Source of the DNA: Corynebacterium mustelae
GTDB lineage: Bacteria > Actinomycetota > Actinomycetes > Mycobacteriales > Mycobacteriaceae
Direction: 5' to 3'
Length of the DNA: 64,000 bases
Assembly (NCBI RefSeq): GCF_001020985.1
Contig: NZ_CP011542.1
Location: 620,001 to 684,000 of the forward strand
Below are positions 13,436 to 48,931 of this stretch, piece after piece. Within the stretch, counting starts at the first letter, position 1. Every line of letters starts with the position of its first letter. A program made the translations under genes and the position numbers. Below the pieces are notes generated by a model that had not been told where the DNA came from, did not search any database, and worked only from the letters and a program-made list of their open reading frames with translations.

Positions 13436-13497
13436 GATTCGACCTTTTTCCGGTATGGCGGTTGATCTTGTGGACTGAGAGGCAGAAAGGTCGAGTT
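13436..13497. repeat. 62-bp inverted-terminus element, copy A
   Basis: Ends GATTCGACCT and AGGTCGAGTT, with TCGACCTTT/AAAGGTCGA pairing. Outer-end distance is 62 bp, identical to the other four copies (21309, 35100, 48767, 48870). The 42-base interior is unrelated to theirs. Its left end differs from the AACTCGAC consensus at two of the first three bases. Confidence 0.65.
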
Positions 13498-13654
13498 GGG
13501 GCTGGGTTCTGGTGTGTTGGTTGCTATTTTGTAGCAGGGTATGTGAAAACTCACGTGGGAAAAATTGTGTCCAAACACAATGAATGGAATGCGGGTCAAC
13601 AAAGTGAAATGGATACGTGGTGTCGTCGAAAAGCTAAAGTGAGGTTGTACCATT

Positions 13655-13691
13655 AAAAAAACCCGGGCGGCCGTTGTTCGGCAACCCGGGT
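13655..13691 (-). terminator. Rho-independent terminator after metY
   Basis: Read on the minus strand, ACCCGGG...CCCGGGT with an inner GCCG/CGGC stem, followed by seven T residues. Fourteen bases past the metY stop. Confidence 0.88.
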
Positions 13692-13704
13692 CGAAATAGC
13701 GGGA

Positions 13705-15021
13705 TTACAGCGCGGCGAAACCTAGTTCCAAATCCGCGATAATATCCGCAATATCTTCAATTCCGACAGACAATCGTACGGTCGCTGGCGAAATGCCAGC
13801 ATTACGCAATTCCTCTTCTGAACTTTGCGAATGTGTGGTTGATGCAGGATGTGCAACCAACGACCGGGTGTCGCCGATGTTAACGACGTTGGAGTGCAGC
13901 TTCAAAGCGTCGATAAACGCCCACGCCTCGTCCTGCCCGCCGTTAACGTCGAAGGATAACGTTGCGCCAGTGTATGTGATTCCCAGCTTCTCCTTCACCG
14001 CGAACCACGGGGACTCCGGCAAACCGGCATAATTGACTTTGGCAACCTTTGGGTGGGTGCTGAGGAACTCCGCGACTTTCTTGGCATTTTCATTGTGGCG
14101 CTCTACCCGCAGGAATAATGTGTCCAAGCCCTGTAAGGTGACCCAGGCGTTAAACGGTGACAGCGCTGCCCCCGTATCGCGCAGCAGCCCCACGCGCGCT
14201 TTCAAACCGAAGGCCGCCGCGCCCAAATCGGCGTACTTCAACCCGTGGTAGGCGGGGTCCGGGGTAACGAACTCCGGGAACACGGGTGTGCCGTCTCGTT
14301 CAACCGTCCAATCGAAGCTGCCGCCGTCAACCAGAATGCCCGCGATCACGGAACCGTTGCCAGTGTAGTATTTTGTCAGCGACGCGATAACAATGTCTGC
14401 TCCCAGTTCCAGCGGGCGCACCAGAGCTGCGGTCGCAATTGTGTTGTCCACAATCAACGGGACGTTATTGCGGTGAGCAACCTCGGCAACAGCTGGGATG
14501 TCCAATACATCTGCTTGCGGATTAGCGAATGTTTCGCCGTAAAACGCCTTGGTATTTGGCTGAACCGCTGCCTGCCACGATTCTGGATCATCAGGATTGT
14601 CTACAAGAGTGACATCAATGCCGAAACGCTTGAGCGTCACCGTCAACAAAGTTTGGGTGCCGCCGTAGAGCCTGGGGCTGGCAACAATATGATCGCCAGC
14701 GCTGGCGAGATTGAGAATCGCCGCGGTTTCCGCTGCTTGCCCGGAGGCAAAAGCCACCGCATGCACACCGCCCTCTAATGCGGCGATCCGGTTCTCCAAC
14801 GCCTCATTGGTGGGATTGTTCAGGCGAGTGTATATCGGCCCCAGCTCTTCCAGCGCAAACCGCTTTTTCGCGTTCTCGGCGGAATCGAAAAGGAAGGAGG
14901 TAGTCAGATATAACGGCTGATTACGGGCACCGGTGTCGGAATCAACCGTCTGGCCGGCGTGAATGGCCTGGGTGGCTAAGCTCCACTCAGCAGCATTGGA
15001 ATTATCGTATTTAGGGCTCAT
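13705..15021 (-). CDS. metY: O-acetylhomoserine sulfhydrylase
   Basis: A 438-residue PLP enzyme of the Cys/Met metabolism family that makes homocysteine directly from O-acetylhomoserine (the MetX product) and sulfide. The PLP-binding lysine is in IASLTKYYTGNGS (about residue 210). FGETFANPQADVLDIP and YHGLKYADLGAAAFGLK match the corynebacterial enzyme closely. The ATG at 15021 gives MSPKYDNSNA, where C. glutamicum MetY begins (MPKYDNSNA). An in-frame TTG at 15060 has a strong AAGGAAG site eight bases upstream and would add 13 residues, so the start is not certain. Confidence 0.95.
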   Translation of the reverse strand: MSPKYDNSNAAEWSLATQAIHAGQTVDSDTGARNQPLYLTTSFLFDSAENAKKRFALEELGPIYTRLNNPTNEALENRIAALEGGVHAVAFASGQAAETAAILNLASAGDHIVASPRLYGGTQTLLTVTLKRFGIDVTLVDNPDDPESWQAAVQPNTKAFYGETFANPQADVLDIPAVAEVAHRNNVPLIVDNTIATAALVRPLELGADIVIASLTKYYTGNGSVIAGILVDGGSFDWTVERDGTPVFPEFVTPDPAYHGLKYADLGAAAFGLKARVGLLRDTGAALSPFNAWVTLQGLDTLFLRVERHNENAKKVAEFLSTHPKVAKVNYAGLPESPWFAVKEKLGITYTGATLSFDVNGGQDEAWAFIDALKLHSNVVNIGDTRSLVAHPASTTHSQSSEEELRNAGISPATVRLSVGIEDIADIIADLELGFAAL

Positions 15022-15087
15022 GATGTGCACTTTCGGTTTTGCGGATCGGATAACTTTCAACGAAATTACTTCCTTGCCACTAAAAAA

Positions 15088-15103
15088 GAAACCGCTTGGT
15101 CTA
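15088..15103 (-). promoter_or_regulatory. McbR-like operator half-site upstream of metY
   Basis: On the minus strand, TAGACCAAGCGGTTTC. The McbR (methionine/cysteine repressor) site in C. glutamicum is TAGAC-N6-GTCTA; the first half is perfect here and the second matches three of five. It lies 67 to 82 bases before the metY ATG. Suggestive only. Confidence 0.3.
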
Positions 15104-15257
15104 TTTTTGGGTTAAAACCGCATGTAAATCCGCATGAATAAAATTCTTGCGCCATAAAATCGCACCCCTGTGGTGTGCTGTGATCCGCGAATTTCGGCTG
15201 GAGAAATCTCGCCACCGCCATAGGTTTCGCGGCACTGGATTTTTGCAAGGGGGTGCA

Positions 15258-15311
15258 ATATTGAACTAATTGAATAGCACTGCGATATTGAATTAATTGA
15301 ACAGCGCTGCC
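15258..15311. repeat. Two tandem 27-base repeats before the AAA ATPase pseudogene
   Basis: Copies 15258-15284 and 15285-15311 match at 23 of 27 positions; the shared core is ATATTGAA-y-TAATTGAA-y-AGC. The core is near-palindromic (TTGAATTAATTGAA). They end 12 bases before the pseudogene ATG, a position suited to a repressor or autoregulatory site. Confidence 0.75.
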
Positions 15312-47734: not shown

Positions 47735-47735
47735 A

Positions 47736-48191
47736 TTAGGAGTTTTCGTACACGTAGTCCAAGAAGGCGGTTGGTAGGCCTGGGCGAATGTCGAGGAGGA
47801 GGTTGAGGAATAGGAAGCAGTGGGAATCGGGGTCTTCGGGTGATTCGATGCCCTGCAGTAGATCGGGGTAGAGGAAGATCAGAGTGAGCCGCTGAATATC
47901 TTTTGCGATACCGTTTAACCTGTCGTGGCGGTGCCACGCTTGTGACCGGGCGGAGGTGAGCTGTTCTCCGGTCACATCTTTTGCGAGGAATCCCCTCGCC
48001 AGATCGAGATCATTGTGGCAGGTGAGGTCACGGTCTAGGGGAAGTACCACAGTCTCGGTGAAGTCGAGACAGAACGTGATGAAAATCGACCACGGGGTGG
48101 ATTCGAAAAACCCAAGGGTTTCCAGCTCGTCTTCCACGCGGACGTCCTCATCATCCATGTCAGGGTTGTGAGGGAGCGAAGTCTCGGCCAT
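47736..48191 (-). CDS. Solo C-terminal-domain protein, family copy
   Basis: A 151-residue acidic protein close to 48243: DELETLGFFESTPWSIFITFCLDFTETVVLPL, ARGFLAKDVTGEQL, IQRLTLIFLYPDLLQGIESPE, FLFLNLLLDIRPGLPTAFLDYV (each shared, shown in parts). The ATG at 48191 is used because the leader TTTATACTTGAG and start position match those of 48689; a TTG at 48242, directly after the previous stop, is possible. Second gene of the operon. Confidence 0.68.
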   Translation of the reverse strand: MAETSLPHNPDMDDEDVRVEDELETLGFFESTPWSIFITFCLDFTETVVLPLDRDLTCHNDLDLARGFLAKDVTGEQLTSARSQAWHRHDRLNGIAKDIQRLTLIFLYPDLLQGIESPEDPDSHCFLFLNLLLDIRPGLPTAFLDYVYENS

Positions 48192-48242
48192 AAGTCTCAA
48201 GTATAAAATCTCCGCGTAGCCACAATCGGGCGAATCCGGCAA

Positions 48243-48689
48243 TTAATTTTCACACACAAAGTTTTTAAAGTCGGTGGGCAGGCTTGGGTCAATGTCCCAC
48301 AGCAGATTGATGAAAAGGAAGCTGTTGGGGTCTGGCCGCTCAGATCTTTCAATTCCGGATAACAGGTCGGGGTAGAGGAAGATCACCGTGAGCCGCTGAA
48401 TGTGCTTGGTCGCCCCAACCAGATCCTTGAGCCTGTCCCACGCTGCGGTGCGGCGTTGCTCAAGGTCGCTTTCGGTGATATGACCTGAAAGGAACTGCCG
48501 TGCGGAGACAATATCGCCCTGGGGGAGTGGGTCGTGGGTTAAGGGTATGACTGATTCTTCAGTGAAGGTGAGACAAAGCCCGATGAAAGTTTCCCACGGT
48601 GTTGAATCGAAAAAGCCTTCTTGCTCAAGCTCGTGGTAGATGCGAATATCGTCGCGATCGCTCAGATCGGGTTCGTCTTCGTTGACCAT
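48243..48689 (-). CDS. Solo C-terminal-domain protein, family copy
   Basis: A 148-residue paralogue of 47736 and 44080: IYHELEQEGFFDSTPWETF, CLTFTEESVIPL, ARQFLSGHITESDLEQRR, IQRLTVIFLYPDLLSGIERSE, FLFINLLWDIDPSLPTDF. First gene of the leftward operon; the leader TTTATGCTTGAG precedes the ATG with no clear ribosome site, as in 47736. Tandem duplication with 47736 is evident. Function unknown. Confidence 0.68.
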   Translation of the reverse strand: MVNEDEPDLSDRDDIRIYHELEQEGFFDSTPWETFIGLCLTFTEESVIPLTHDPLPQGDIVSARQFLSGHITESDLEQRRTAAWDRLKDLVGATKHIQRLTVIFLYPDLLSGIERSERPDPNSFLFINLLWDIDPSLPTDFKNFVCEN

Positions 48690-48766
48690 AAAACTCAAGC
48701 ATAAAGCAAGAAAGCGTGGGATTCTGGCGTTTGGGACGTTCCGAGTTCCGGCTCGTTTCCCTATGC

Positions 48767-48828
48767 AACTCGACCAATCCAGTCCAGGTATAGGCGTTTC
48801 GTAGTCTAGGTGCTGGAAAAGTCGAGTT
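48767..48828. repeat. 62-bp inverted-terminus element, copy D
   Basis: Ends AACTCGACCA and AAGTCGAGTT; the outer eight bases pair perfectly and the inner two do not. Overall 62 bp. It is 41 bases from copy E in the same orientation and begins with the same AACTCGACCAATCC, so D and E may be a local duplication. Confidence 0.75.
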
Positions 48829-48869
48829 GGTGTATTTCTAGGGTTCCAAGCCGCGCGGAACGAAGGGGT

Positions 48870-48931
48870 AACTCGACCAATCCCGCGTGAGGTACTGGTG
48901 TTGGTGGGGTGTTTATGGAAAGAGTCGAGTT
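48870..48931. repeat. 62-bp inverted-terminus element, copy E
   Basis: Ends AACTCGACCA and GAGTCGAGTT, overall 62 bp; only the outer eight bases pair. The interior is G/T-rich and, after the first 14 bases, differs from copy D. Confidence 0.75.

What the first reader, a model, noticed from the sequence alone, without database searches (positions are those of the whole stretch)
13436..48931. Five intergenic elements of exactly 62 bp with inverted AACTCGAC ends and unrelated interiors
At 13436, 21309, 35100, 48767 and 48870 the distance between the outer edges of AACTCGAC(C/T) and its inverse is 62 bp every time, while the 42-base interiors do not align (apart from a short match between D and E). 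Ends covary (C-G in A and C, T-A in B). Constant length with a free interior is not what transposon decay gives; it suggests a pair of protein-binding sites at fixed helical spacing, a structured RNA with a closing stem, or an unknown cassette-like element. All lie between genes.
Basis: seen in the sequence. Interest (0 to 1): 0.78.

Follow-up and report, generated by a model that had tools for sequence, protein, structure and literature searches.

The report
Genome-wide docking sites of a nuclease
Five short intergenic sequences in this Corynebacterium belong to a genome-wide family of paired DNA sites, which also stand in rows directly in front of the copies of one nuclease-like gene, and so point to an undescribed partnership between scattered repeats and an enzyme.

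Summary
The five elements are real and belong to a genome-wide family. The host genome has 45 inverted AACTCGA(C/T) pairs at outer spacings of 46-74 bp; 44 are 61-63 bp and 38 exactly 62. The two ends vary independently over 128 copies, so this is not a conserved hairpin or RNA stem but two inverted copies of a 12-bp site, AACTCGACYTWT, at fixed spacing. Interiors share a weak consensus and diverge as fast as flanking DNA.

Of 242 genomes of the genus only three carry the family. In two of them, all 11 close copies of one gene have 2-7 elements directly upstream; none was found in the third, a draft. The protein is AbiEi-like with a Vsr/homing-type nuclease fold. Of 20 distant homologues, 11 have other inverted pairs upstream, against 4 of 133 control genes. 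One such pair, TGTGCTGC at 63 bp, has also multiplied, mainly in genomes whose proteins form one clade.

Best reading: operator-type sites of an AbiEi-nuclease family, dispersed in a REPIN-like way. Binding, cutting and the mode of spread are inferred.

The parts
13436..13497 (-). Element A, 62 bp; half-sites 13436-13447 (imperfect, GATTCGAC) and 13486-13497 (exact); strand is that of the C-rich consensus
   Evidence: E 4.4e-10, not in the model's seed; between convergent genes 12482-13321 (HtaA domain) and 13705-15060
21309..21370 (+). Element B, 62 bp; half-sites 21309-21320 and 21359-21370
   Evidence: E 2.8e-15, in the seed
35100..35161 (+). Element C, 62 bp; half-sites 35100-35111 and 35150-35161; the G216 interval has about 1 kb of other DNA and no element
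   Evidence: (E 2.2e-15, in the seed)
48767..48828 (-). Element D, 62 bp; half-sites 48767-48778 and 48817-48828; interior differs from the G216 counterpart at 20 of 38 positions
   Evidence: (E 1.6e-11, in the seed)
48870..48931 (-). Element E, 62 bp; half-sites 48870-48881 and 48920-48931; starts 103 bp from D
   Evidence: (E 5e-9, not in the seed)

Best explanation
Each 62-bp element is a paired, operator-type binding site: two inverted copies of the 12-bp motif AACTCGACYTWT, 50 bp apart centre to centre, with a conserved A-rich centre and an otherwise free interior. The cognate protein is most likely the multi-copy AbiEi-like/Vsr-type nuclease whose genes carry arrays of 2-7 such elements upstream. 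Subunits would bind the inverted half-sites at a fixed distance, as AbiEi-family antitoxins do on their own promoters, and would at least autoregulate the gene. The array-plus-gene unit has been copied to unrelated places, and dozens to over a hundred further elements are scattered elsewhere, much as REPINs accompany a RAYT gene. Shown: structure of the element, independence of the arms, fixed length, distribution, upstream arrays, domain make-up of the protein, copied units, array changes by whole periods. Inferred: that the protein binds the sites, that the scattered sites serve it, and that they spread by recombination at the sites.
Confidence: 0.7

Rival explanations
1. The elements are sites of an unrelated DNA-binding protein, such as a nucleoid protein or global regulator, and the nuclease genes are only part of its regulon.
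For: Sites are spread over the chromosome and avoid 820 kb across the dnaA end (p 0.0016) and a second 611-kb stretch (p 0.0001) in G000 (dnaA at coordinate 1 was recognised by me from the protein). Ends are kept in place.
Against: It does not explain why distant homologues of the nuclease have other inverted pairs upstream, nor why the half-site follows the protein clade, nor why elements go with arrays at 11 of 11 gene copies.
Confidence: 0.15
2. They are MITEs or REPINs moved by an ordinary transposase, now mostly inactive.
For: Interspersed, inverted ends, intergenic, in clusters; REPINs too are two inverted repeats around a highly diverse spacer (PMC8049555, passages).
Against: No target-site duplication. 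No Y1_Tnp gene in G000, G216 or G086; 2 of 24 genomes searched have one. No longer element with the same ends was seen among the sites listed, but that list was cut off. Hairpin pairing is not maintained. Most intervals compared hold the element in both species (23 of 25, a biased sample).
Confidence: 0.08
3. A structured RNA or transcription terminator with a closing stem.
For: The arms are complementary and single copies fold to about -10 to -29 kcal/mol.
Against: Arms vary independently at pairs 1/62, 2/61, 9/54, 11/52 and 13-16; only pair 10/53 exceeds shuffles, 93 against 84.1 paired. All gene orientations occur: 41 tandem, 18 convergent, 6 divergent. No Rfam match at gathering score.
Confidence: 0.03
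4. Passive relics of a longer, roughly 230-bp repeat without function of their own.
For: Many G000 copies share diffuse flanks; interior and flanks diverge at the same rate.
Against: The 62-bp module has fixed length and conserved ends with quite different flanks in other clusters and in G086.
Confidence: 0.04

Closest known systems
REPINs with their RAYT transposase (PMC8049555, passages; PMC3116915, listing only)
   Same: Two inverted conserved ends around a diverse spacer; scores of intergenic copies; single and clustered copies; a partner gene in the same genomes; local gain and loss of copies.
   Different: Partner is an AbiEi-like/Vsr-type nuclease, not a Y1 transposase; hairpin pairing is not maintained; gene is multi-copy; spacing is fixed to about 1 bp.
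AbiEi-family antitoxin operators: S. agalactiae AbiEi and M. tuberculosis Rv2827c (PMC7319586, passages)
   Same: Paired inverted repeats upstream of the protein's own gene, more than one pair in tandem for Rv2827c, 59 bp a pair by the figures given there; AbiEi fold in the protein.
   Different: Conserved half-site is 12 bp, not 23; sites are scattered over the genome; protein carries a nuclease domain; no toxin partner was looked for.
Vsr-like homing endonucleases such as I-Bth0305I
   Different: Cleavage at the elements is not shown; the site is a paired palindrome present many times in the host; not seen inside an intron or split target.
MITEs
   Same: Short, interspersed, inverted ends.
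   Different: No target-site duplication; no transposon with the same ends found.

Membership tests
REPIN/RAYT | Two inverted conserved ends around a diverse spacer | tested here: met
REPIN/RAYT | Hairpin-forming pairing maintained | tested here: not met
   Arms vary independently in 128 copies
REPIN/RAYT | Y1 (RAYT) transposase in the genome | tested here: not met
   No PF01797 match in G000, G216, G086; control genomes ring
AbiEi-family regulator with operator | AbiEi-like domain in the protein | tested here: met
AbiEi-family regulator with operator | Paired inverted repeats upstream of its own gene | tested here: met
   11 of 11 close copies; 11 of 20 distant ones
AbiEi-family regulator with operator | N-terminal winged helix that binds the repeats | tested here: inconclusive
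   Residues 1-76 have pLDDT under 50
AbiEi-family regulator with operator | Adjacent AbiEii toxin gene | not tested
   No search made
Vsr/DUF559-type nuclease | PD-(D/E)XK/Vsr fold and conserved acidic residues | tested here: met
Homing endonuclease | Cleaves its site and is copied into it | not testable with these tools
   Only copied units are seen
MITE | Target-site duplication | tested here: not met
   k 2-8, three genomes, no excess
MITE | Autonomous relative with the same ends | tested here: inconclusive
   None among listed single ends, list cut off
Structured RNA family | Covarying stem | tested here: not met
   Rfam none

The most novel reading that the evidence does not exclude
A self-spreading system of a new make-up: an AbiEi-like nuclease binds its own fixed-length paired sites and cuts near their A-rich centre; repair by recombination with other copies converts interiors, expands and contracts arrays and carries the array-plus-nuclease unit to new sites, so that the operator population and the enzyme spread together. 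Each nuclease lineage would own a private site code and its own territory on the chromosome.
Probability: 0.25. Interest if true: 0.92.

Novelty: new variant of a known kind. Interest (0 to 1): 0.76.

Why it matters
The best-known dispersed palindromic repeats of bacteria with a partner enzyme are REP/REPIN with Y1 transposases. Here the partner looks like a toxin-antitoxin type regulator joined to a repair- or homing-type nuclease, and the repeats look like its operators. If true, this is a second, independent route by which short repeats persist in bacterial genomes. It also offers a series of natural protein-site pairs (AACTCGAC, TGTGCTGC, GTCGGAGATT and others) in which site recognition can be compared directly, and it suggests a ligand for a group of DUF559/AbiEi-like proteins now named hypothetical or 'very-short-patch-repair endonuclease' (names).

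Tried and rejected
G-quadruplex in the G-rich interior: motif in 25 of 63, 21 of 47 and 16 of 38 copies of the three species, against shuffle means of 19.8, 16.1 and 14.5 and maxima of 28, 25 and 21; not enriched.

Integron attC sites: the length class fits, but their core sites were recalled, not looked up, the flanks do not extend the pairing, and loop length here is fixed; dropped.

REPIN with RAYT: no Y1_Tnp. MITE: no duplications. RNA: no covariation.

Scattered elements as relics of whole array-plus-gene units: tblastn of five family proteins found nothing except at the known arrays, in 41 G000, 54 G216 and 11 G086 loci.

Carriage by plasmids or phages: no match of P0001 in either collection.

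Solved relatives by sequence: three chains at E 0.11-0.34 (keratin twice, PsbQ), taken as chance. Foldseek alone gave no match at E 0.001 or less. VIA-align also lists nucleotidyltransferases for residues 60-218.

Helical phasing of array spacing in C. felinum (peaks near 84, 93, 104, 115 and 126 bp) is suggestive only: R 0.63 at 10.5 bp for 51 spacings, which are not independent; R 0.38, p 0.045 for the 22 distinct values; best periods 11.0 and 11.45 (100 of 136 sites were listed).

Conserved centre: present in the AACTCGAC family but not in 18 copies of the TGTGCTGC family.

Literature: the searches listed no paper that describes this family; only open-licence papers are held, and apart from passages of PMC7319586 and PMC8049555 only listings were seen.
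Full report
WHAT IS THERE. The window is C1:620001-684000 of a 3.47-Mb Corynebacterium genome, G000. AACTCGAC occurs nine times in the window against 1.68 expected. The five reported elements are each 62 bp, though A has an imperfect left end. Genome-wide, AACTCGAY-N30-58-RTCGAGTT gives 45 places and the reversed control 0. 38 of 45 are 62 bp, 4 are 63, 2 are 61 and one is 71. A covariance model of 34 copies finds 111 matches in G000, 79 in G216 and 150 in G086 at E 0.5 or less; both strands of one place can count, and 150 is the number scored. 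In G086 a core pattern allowing outer lengths 61-63 gives 136 sites, of which 100 were listed.

WHO HAS IT. Of 242 genomes of the genus, 18 match the exact pattern. Three have 44, 31 and 29 places (G000, G086, G216); the other 15 have one or two each of a different stretch of 68-71 bp. With the covariance model at E 1e-5 only those three remain. In the scan of named species genomes all 21 matching stretches come from one MAG, Corynebacterium sp. S30M_Sa_12, whose positions equal those of G216; that scan may leave out the window's own genome, and it did not list G086. By the isocitrate dehydrogenase next to D and E, the nearest genomes are G216 (96%) and G086 (91%), then G090 and G210 (90%), which lack the elements. 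G086 is probably Corynebacterium felinum, judged by the names and the 3,236,053-bp contig of proteins P0004-P0006 and P0008 (the record held here has 3,236,025 bases).

ANATOMY. In 128 distinct 62-bp copies from the three genomes the two arms vary independently. Pairs 1/62, 2/61, 9/54, 11/52 and 13/50 to 16/47 form standard pairs about as often as shuffled arms; only 10/53 is clearly above (93 against 84.1, 0 of 500 shuffles). The search for these copies required TCGA in both arms, so those positions say nothing. The element is thus two inverted copies of a double-stranded motif, AACTCGACYTWT. Three blocks are conserved in each species: 1-12, the centre 29-34 (A31 in 90, 92 and 78% of non-redundant copies) and 51-62. 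Interiors are strand-skewed (0.40-0.46 against 0.18 expected) but not enriched in quadruplex motifs. There is no target-site duplication. Of 66 places in G000 loci, 65 lie between genes predicted by a simple script and one overlaps a predicted gene start by two bases; gene orientations are 41 tandem, 18 convergent and 6 divergent, against shares of 60, 24 and 16% expected from intergenic length.

EVOLUTION. G216 is close enough for comparison site by site. In 14 non-duplicate pairs with similar flanks on both sides, interior positions 13-50 differ at 99 of 532 and flanks at 390 of 2150, the same rate. Positions 9-12 and 51-54 differ at 6 of 112 (p 2e-4 against the interior) and the outer positions 1, 2, 61 and 62 at 5 of 56. 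So the ends seem kept in place while the interior drifts. Caveat: G216 loci were mostly fetched because they hold an element, and the TCGA core was required, so this is an upper estimate of conservation. Of 65 G000 elements, 25 had gene anchors on both sides in the G216 DNA held; in 23 of these the G216 interval also holds an element. It is missing in two: window C, where G216 has about 1 kb of other DNA, and 339625, where the G216 interval is 318 bp shorter. Copy number differs by whole periods (708195/708476 by 281 bp, 693769/693971 by 202 bp), with junctions in or next to the elements, as in unequal recombination. At D the interior differs at 20 of 38 positions although the 80 bp to its left differ at 2, which looks like conversion. 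Many G000 copies sit in a longer diffuse repeat of about 230 bp; others sit in quite different flanks.

THE PARTNER GENE. The clusters at 312, 610 and 876 kb of G000 stand in front of copies of one gene. A protein search of 16 genomes found 4 close copies in G000 (one broken) and 7 in G086, and 25 distant matches (28-39%) in G000, G216, G086 and eight other genomes. All 11 close copies have elements upstream: 6, 7, 4, 3, 5, 2 and 5 in G086 and 2, 3, 3 and 5 in G000. The nearest is 187-216 bp from the matched 5' end in nine, 276 bp in one and 374 bp in one. The two distant G000 homologues examined the same way have none within 900 bp (one 65-bp loose match at 907). The family was first seen near elements, but searched whole genomes, so 11 of 11 is not a selection effect; the copies are related, however, and count as perhaps four lineages. 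Recent array-plus-gene copies are 97-99% identical at unrelated places (550, 587 and 829 kb; 1.05 and 2.53 Mb in G086), and in these and in three of the G000 copies the similarity ends at or next to the stop codon. The copy nearest to the window, 610884-611828, ends about 8 kb before it. No close copy was found in G216, whose contigs end near several elements.

A WIDER RULE. Of the 25 distant matches, 20 had DNA at hand. 11 of these 20 have an exact inverted repeat with arms of 10 bp or more and outer length 50-85 within 600 bp upstream, against 4 of 133 other G000 genes (genes with an AACTCGAC pair upstream were left out of the control; Fisher p 1e-8). Some of the 11 are orthologous pairs, and by the same strict test only 3 of 10 close copies pass. 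The sequences differ: TGTGTGCTGCG, GTCGGAGATT, GACGACATGTAGC, CCCCGACATTAC and others. The TGTGCTGC pair also has a fixed length: of 20 distinct copies held, 18 are 63 bp, one 62 and one 64, although 56-72 was allowed. It occurs 31 times in G000, 40 in G216, 21 in G138, 2 in G209 (53% complete) and 0 in the other 238 genomes; the reversed control matched once, in G139. The proteins with this pair upstream in G000, G216 and G138 form one clade (100/98); the G209 homologue seen is in another. The 16 of 31 G000 sites that were listed lie at 2.846-2.949 Mb, a stretch without exact AACTCGAC pairs.

READING. The simplest account is that the paired sites are operators of this AbiEi-nuclease family, each lineage with its own half-site, and that in some lineages the operators have multiplied over the chromosome. 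How they multiply is open: recombination between copies is visible, while nuclease-driven homing is an attractive extension that rests on fold and copied units alone. Eight of the 11 close genes also have one or two perfect DnaA boxes (motif recalled), always in the same direction, 72-161 bp upstream, against 9 in 270 kb of background, six of which belong to these same arrays.

NOVELTY. It works like REPIN with RAYT for the population of repeats and like AbiEi operators for the arrays. Membership in REPIN/RAYT fails on the Y1 enzyme and on hairpin maintenance. For the AbiEi family, fold and upstream inverted repeats are met; binding and a toxin partner are untested. No description was found in the searches, which cover open-licence papers only.

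Noticed in passing
L194:6662, L195:9850, L197:4192 and 4452 (genome G090): A further inverted-end family in a genome without AACTCGAC elements: CAATTGGTGT...ACACCAATTG, 68 bp in all four copies found in 160 kb, with a variable middle and one pair 260 bp apart. Its partner gene, if any, is unknown; the nuclease family was not found in G090.
   Followed up: partly
L194:10069 and 10131, L198:3620 and 3682, L199:5283 and 5365 (genome G090): Another G090 repeat, ATGGAATCTGYGACA ends, in alternating 46-bp and 66-bp elements side by side.
   Followed up: no
upstream of the nuclease genes, e.g. L240, L241, L242, L232-L235: One or two perfect TTATCCACA boxes (DnaA box, recalled) in one direction between array and gene in 8 of 11 copies, which may tie expression to replication.
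   Followed up: partly
window 20257-21245: Next to element B, G000 has about 1 kb with a methyltransferase-like gene (20318-21094) where G216 has about 150 bp.
   Followed up: partly
G000 chromosome: Exact AACTCGAC pairs are missing from 820 kb across the dnaA end and from a 611-kb stretch at 1.45-2.07 Mb, more than expected for 38 random clusters (p 0.0016 and 0.0001).
   Followed up: partly
genome G138, loci L205, L215, L221, L226, L229: Nine distant homologues of the nuclease in one genome; of the five examined, two have an exact inverted pair upstream by the test and three do not.
   Followed up: partly
G086:C1:551261-551881 and 829676-830305: Arrays alternate two or more element types with about 115-bp spacing, and one array-plus-gene unit is a near copy of the other.
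   Followed up: partly
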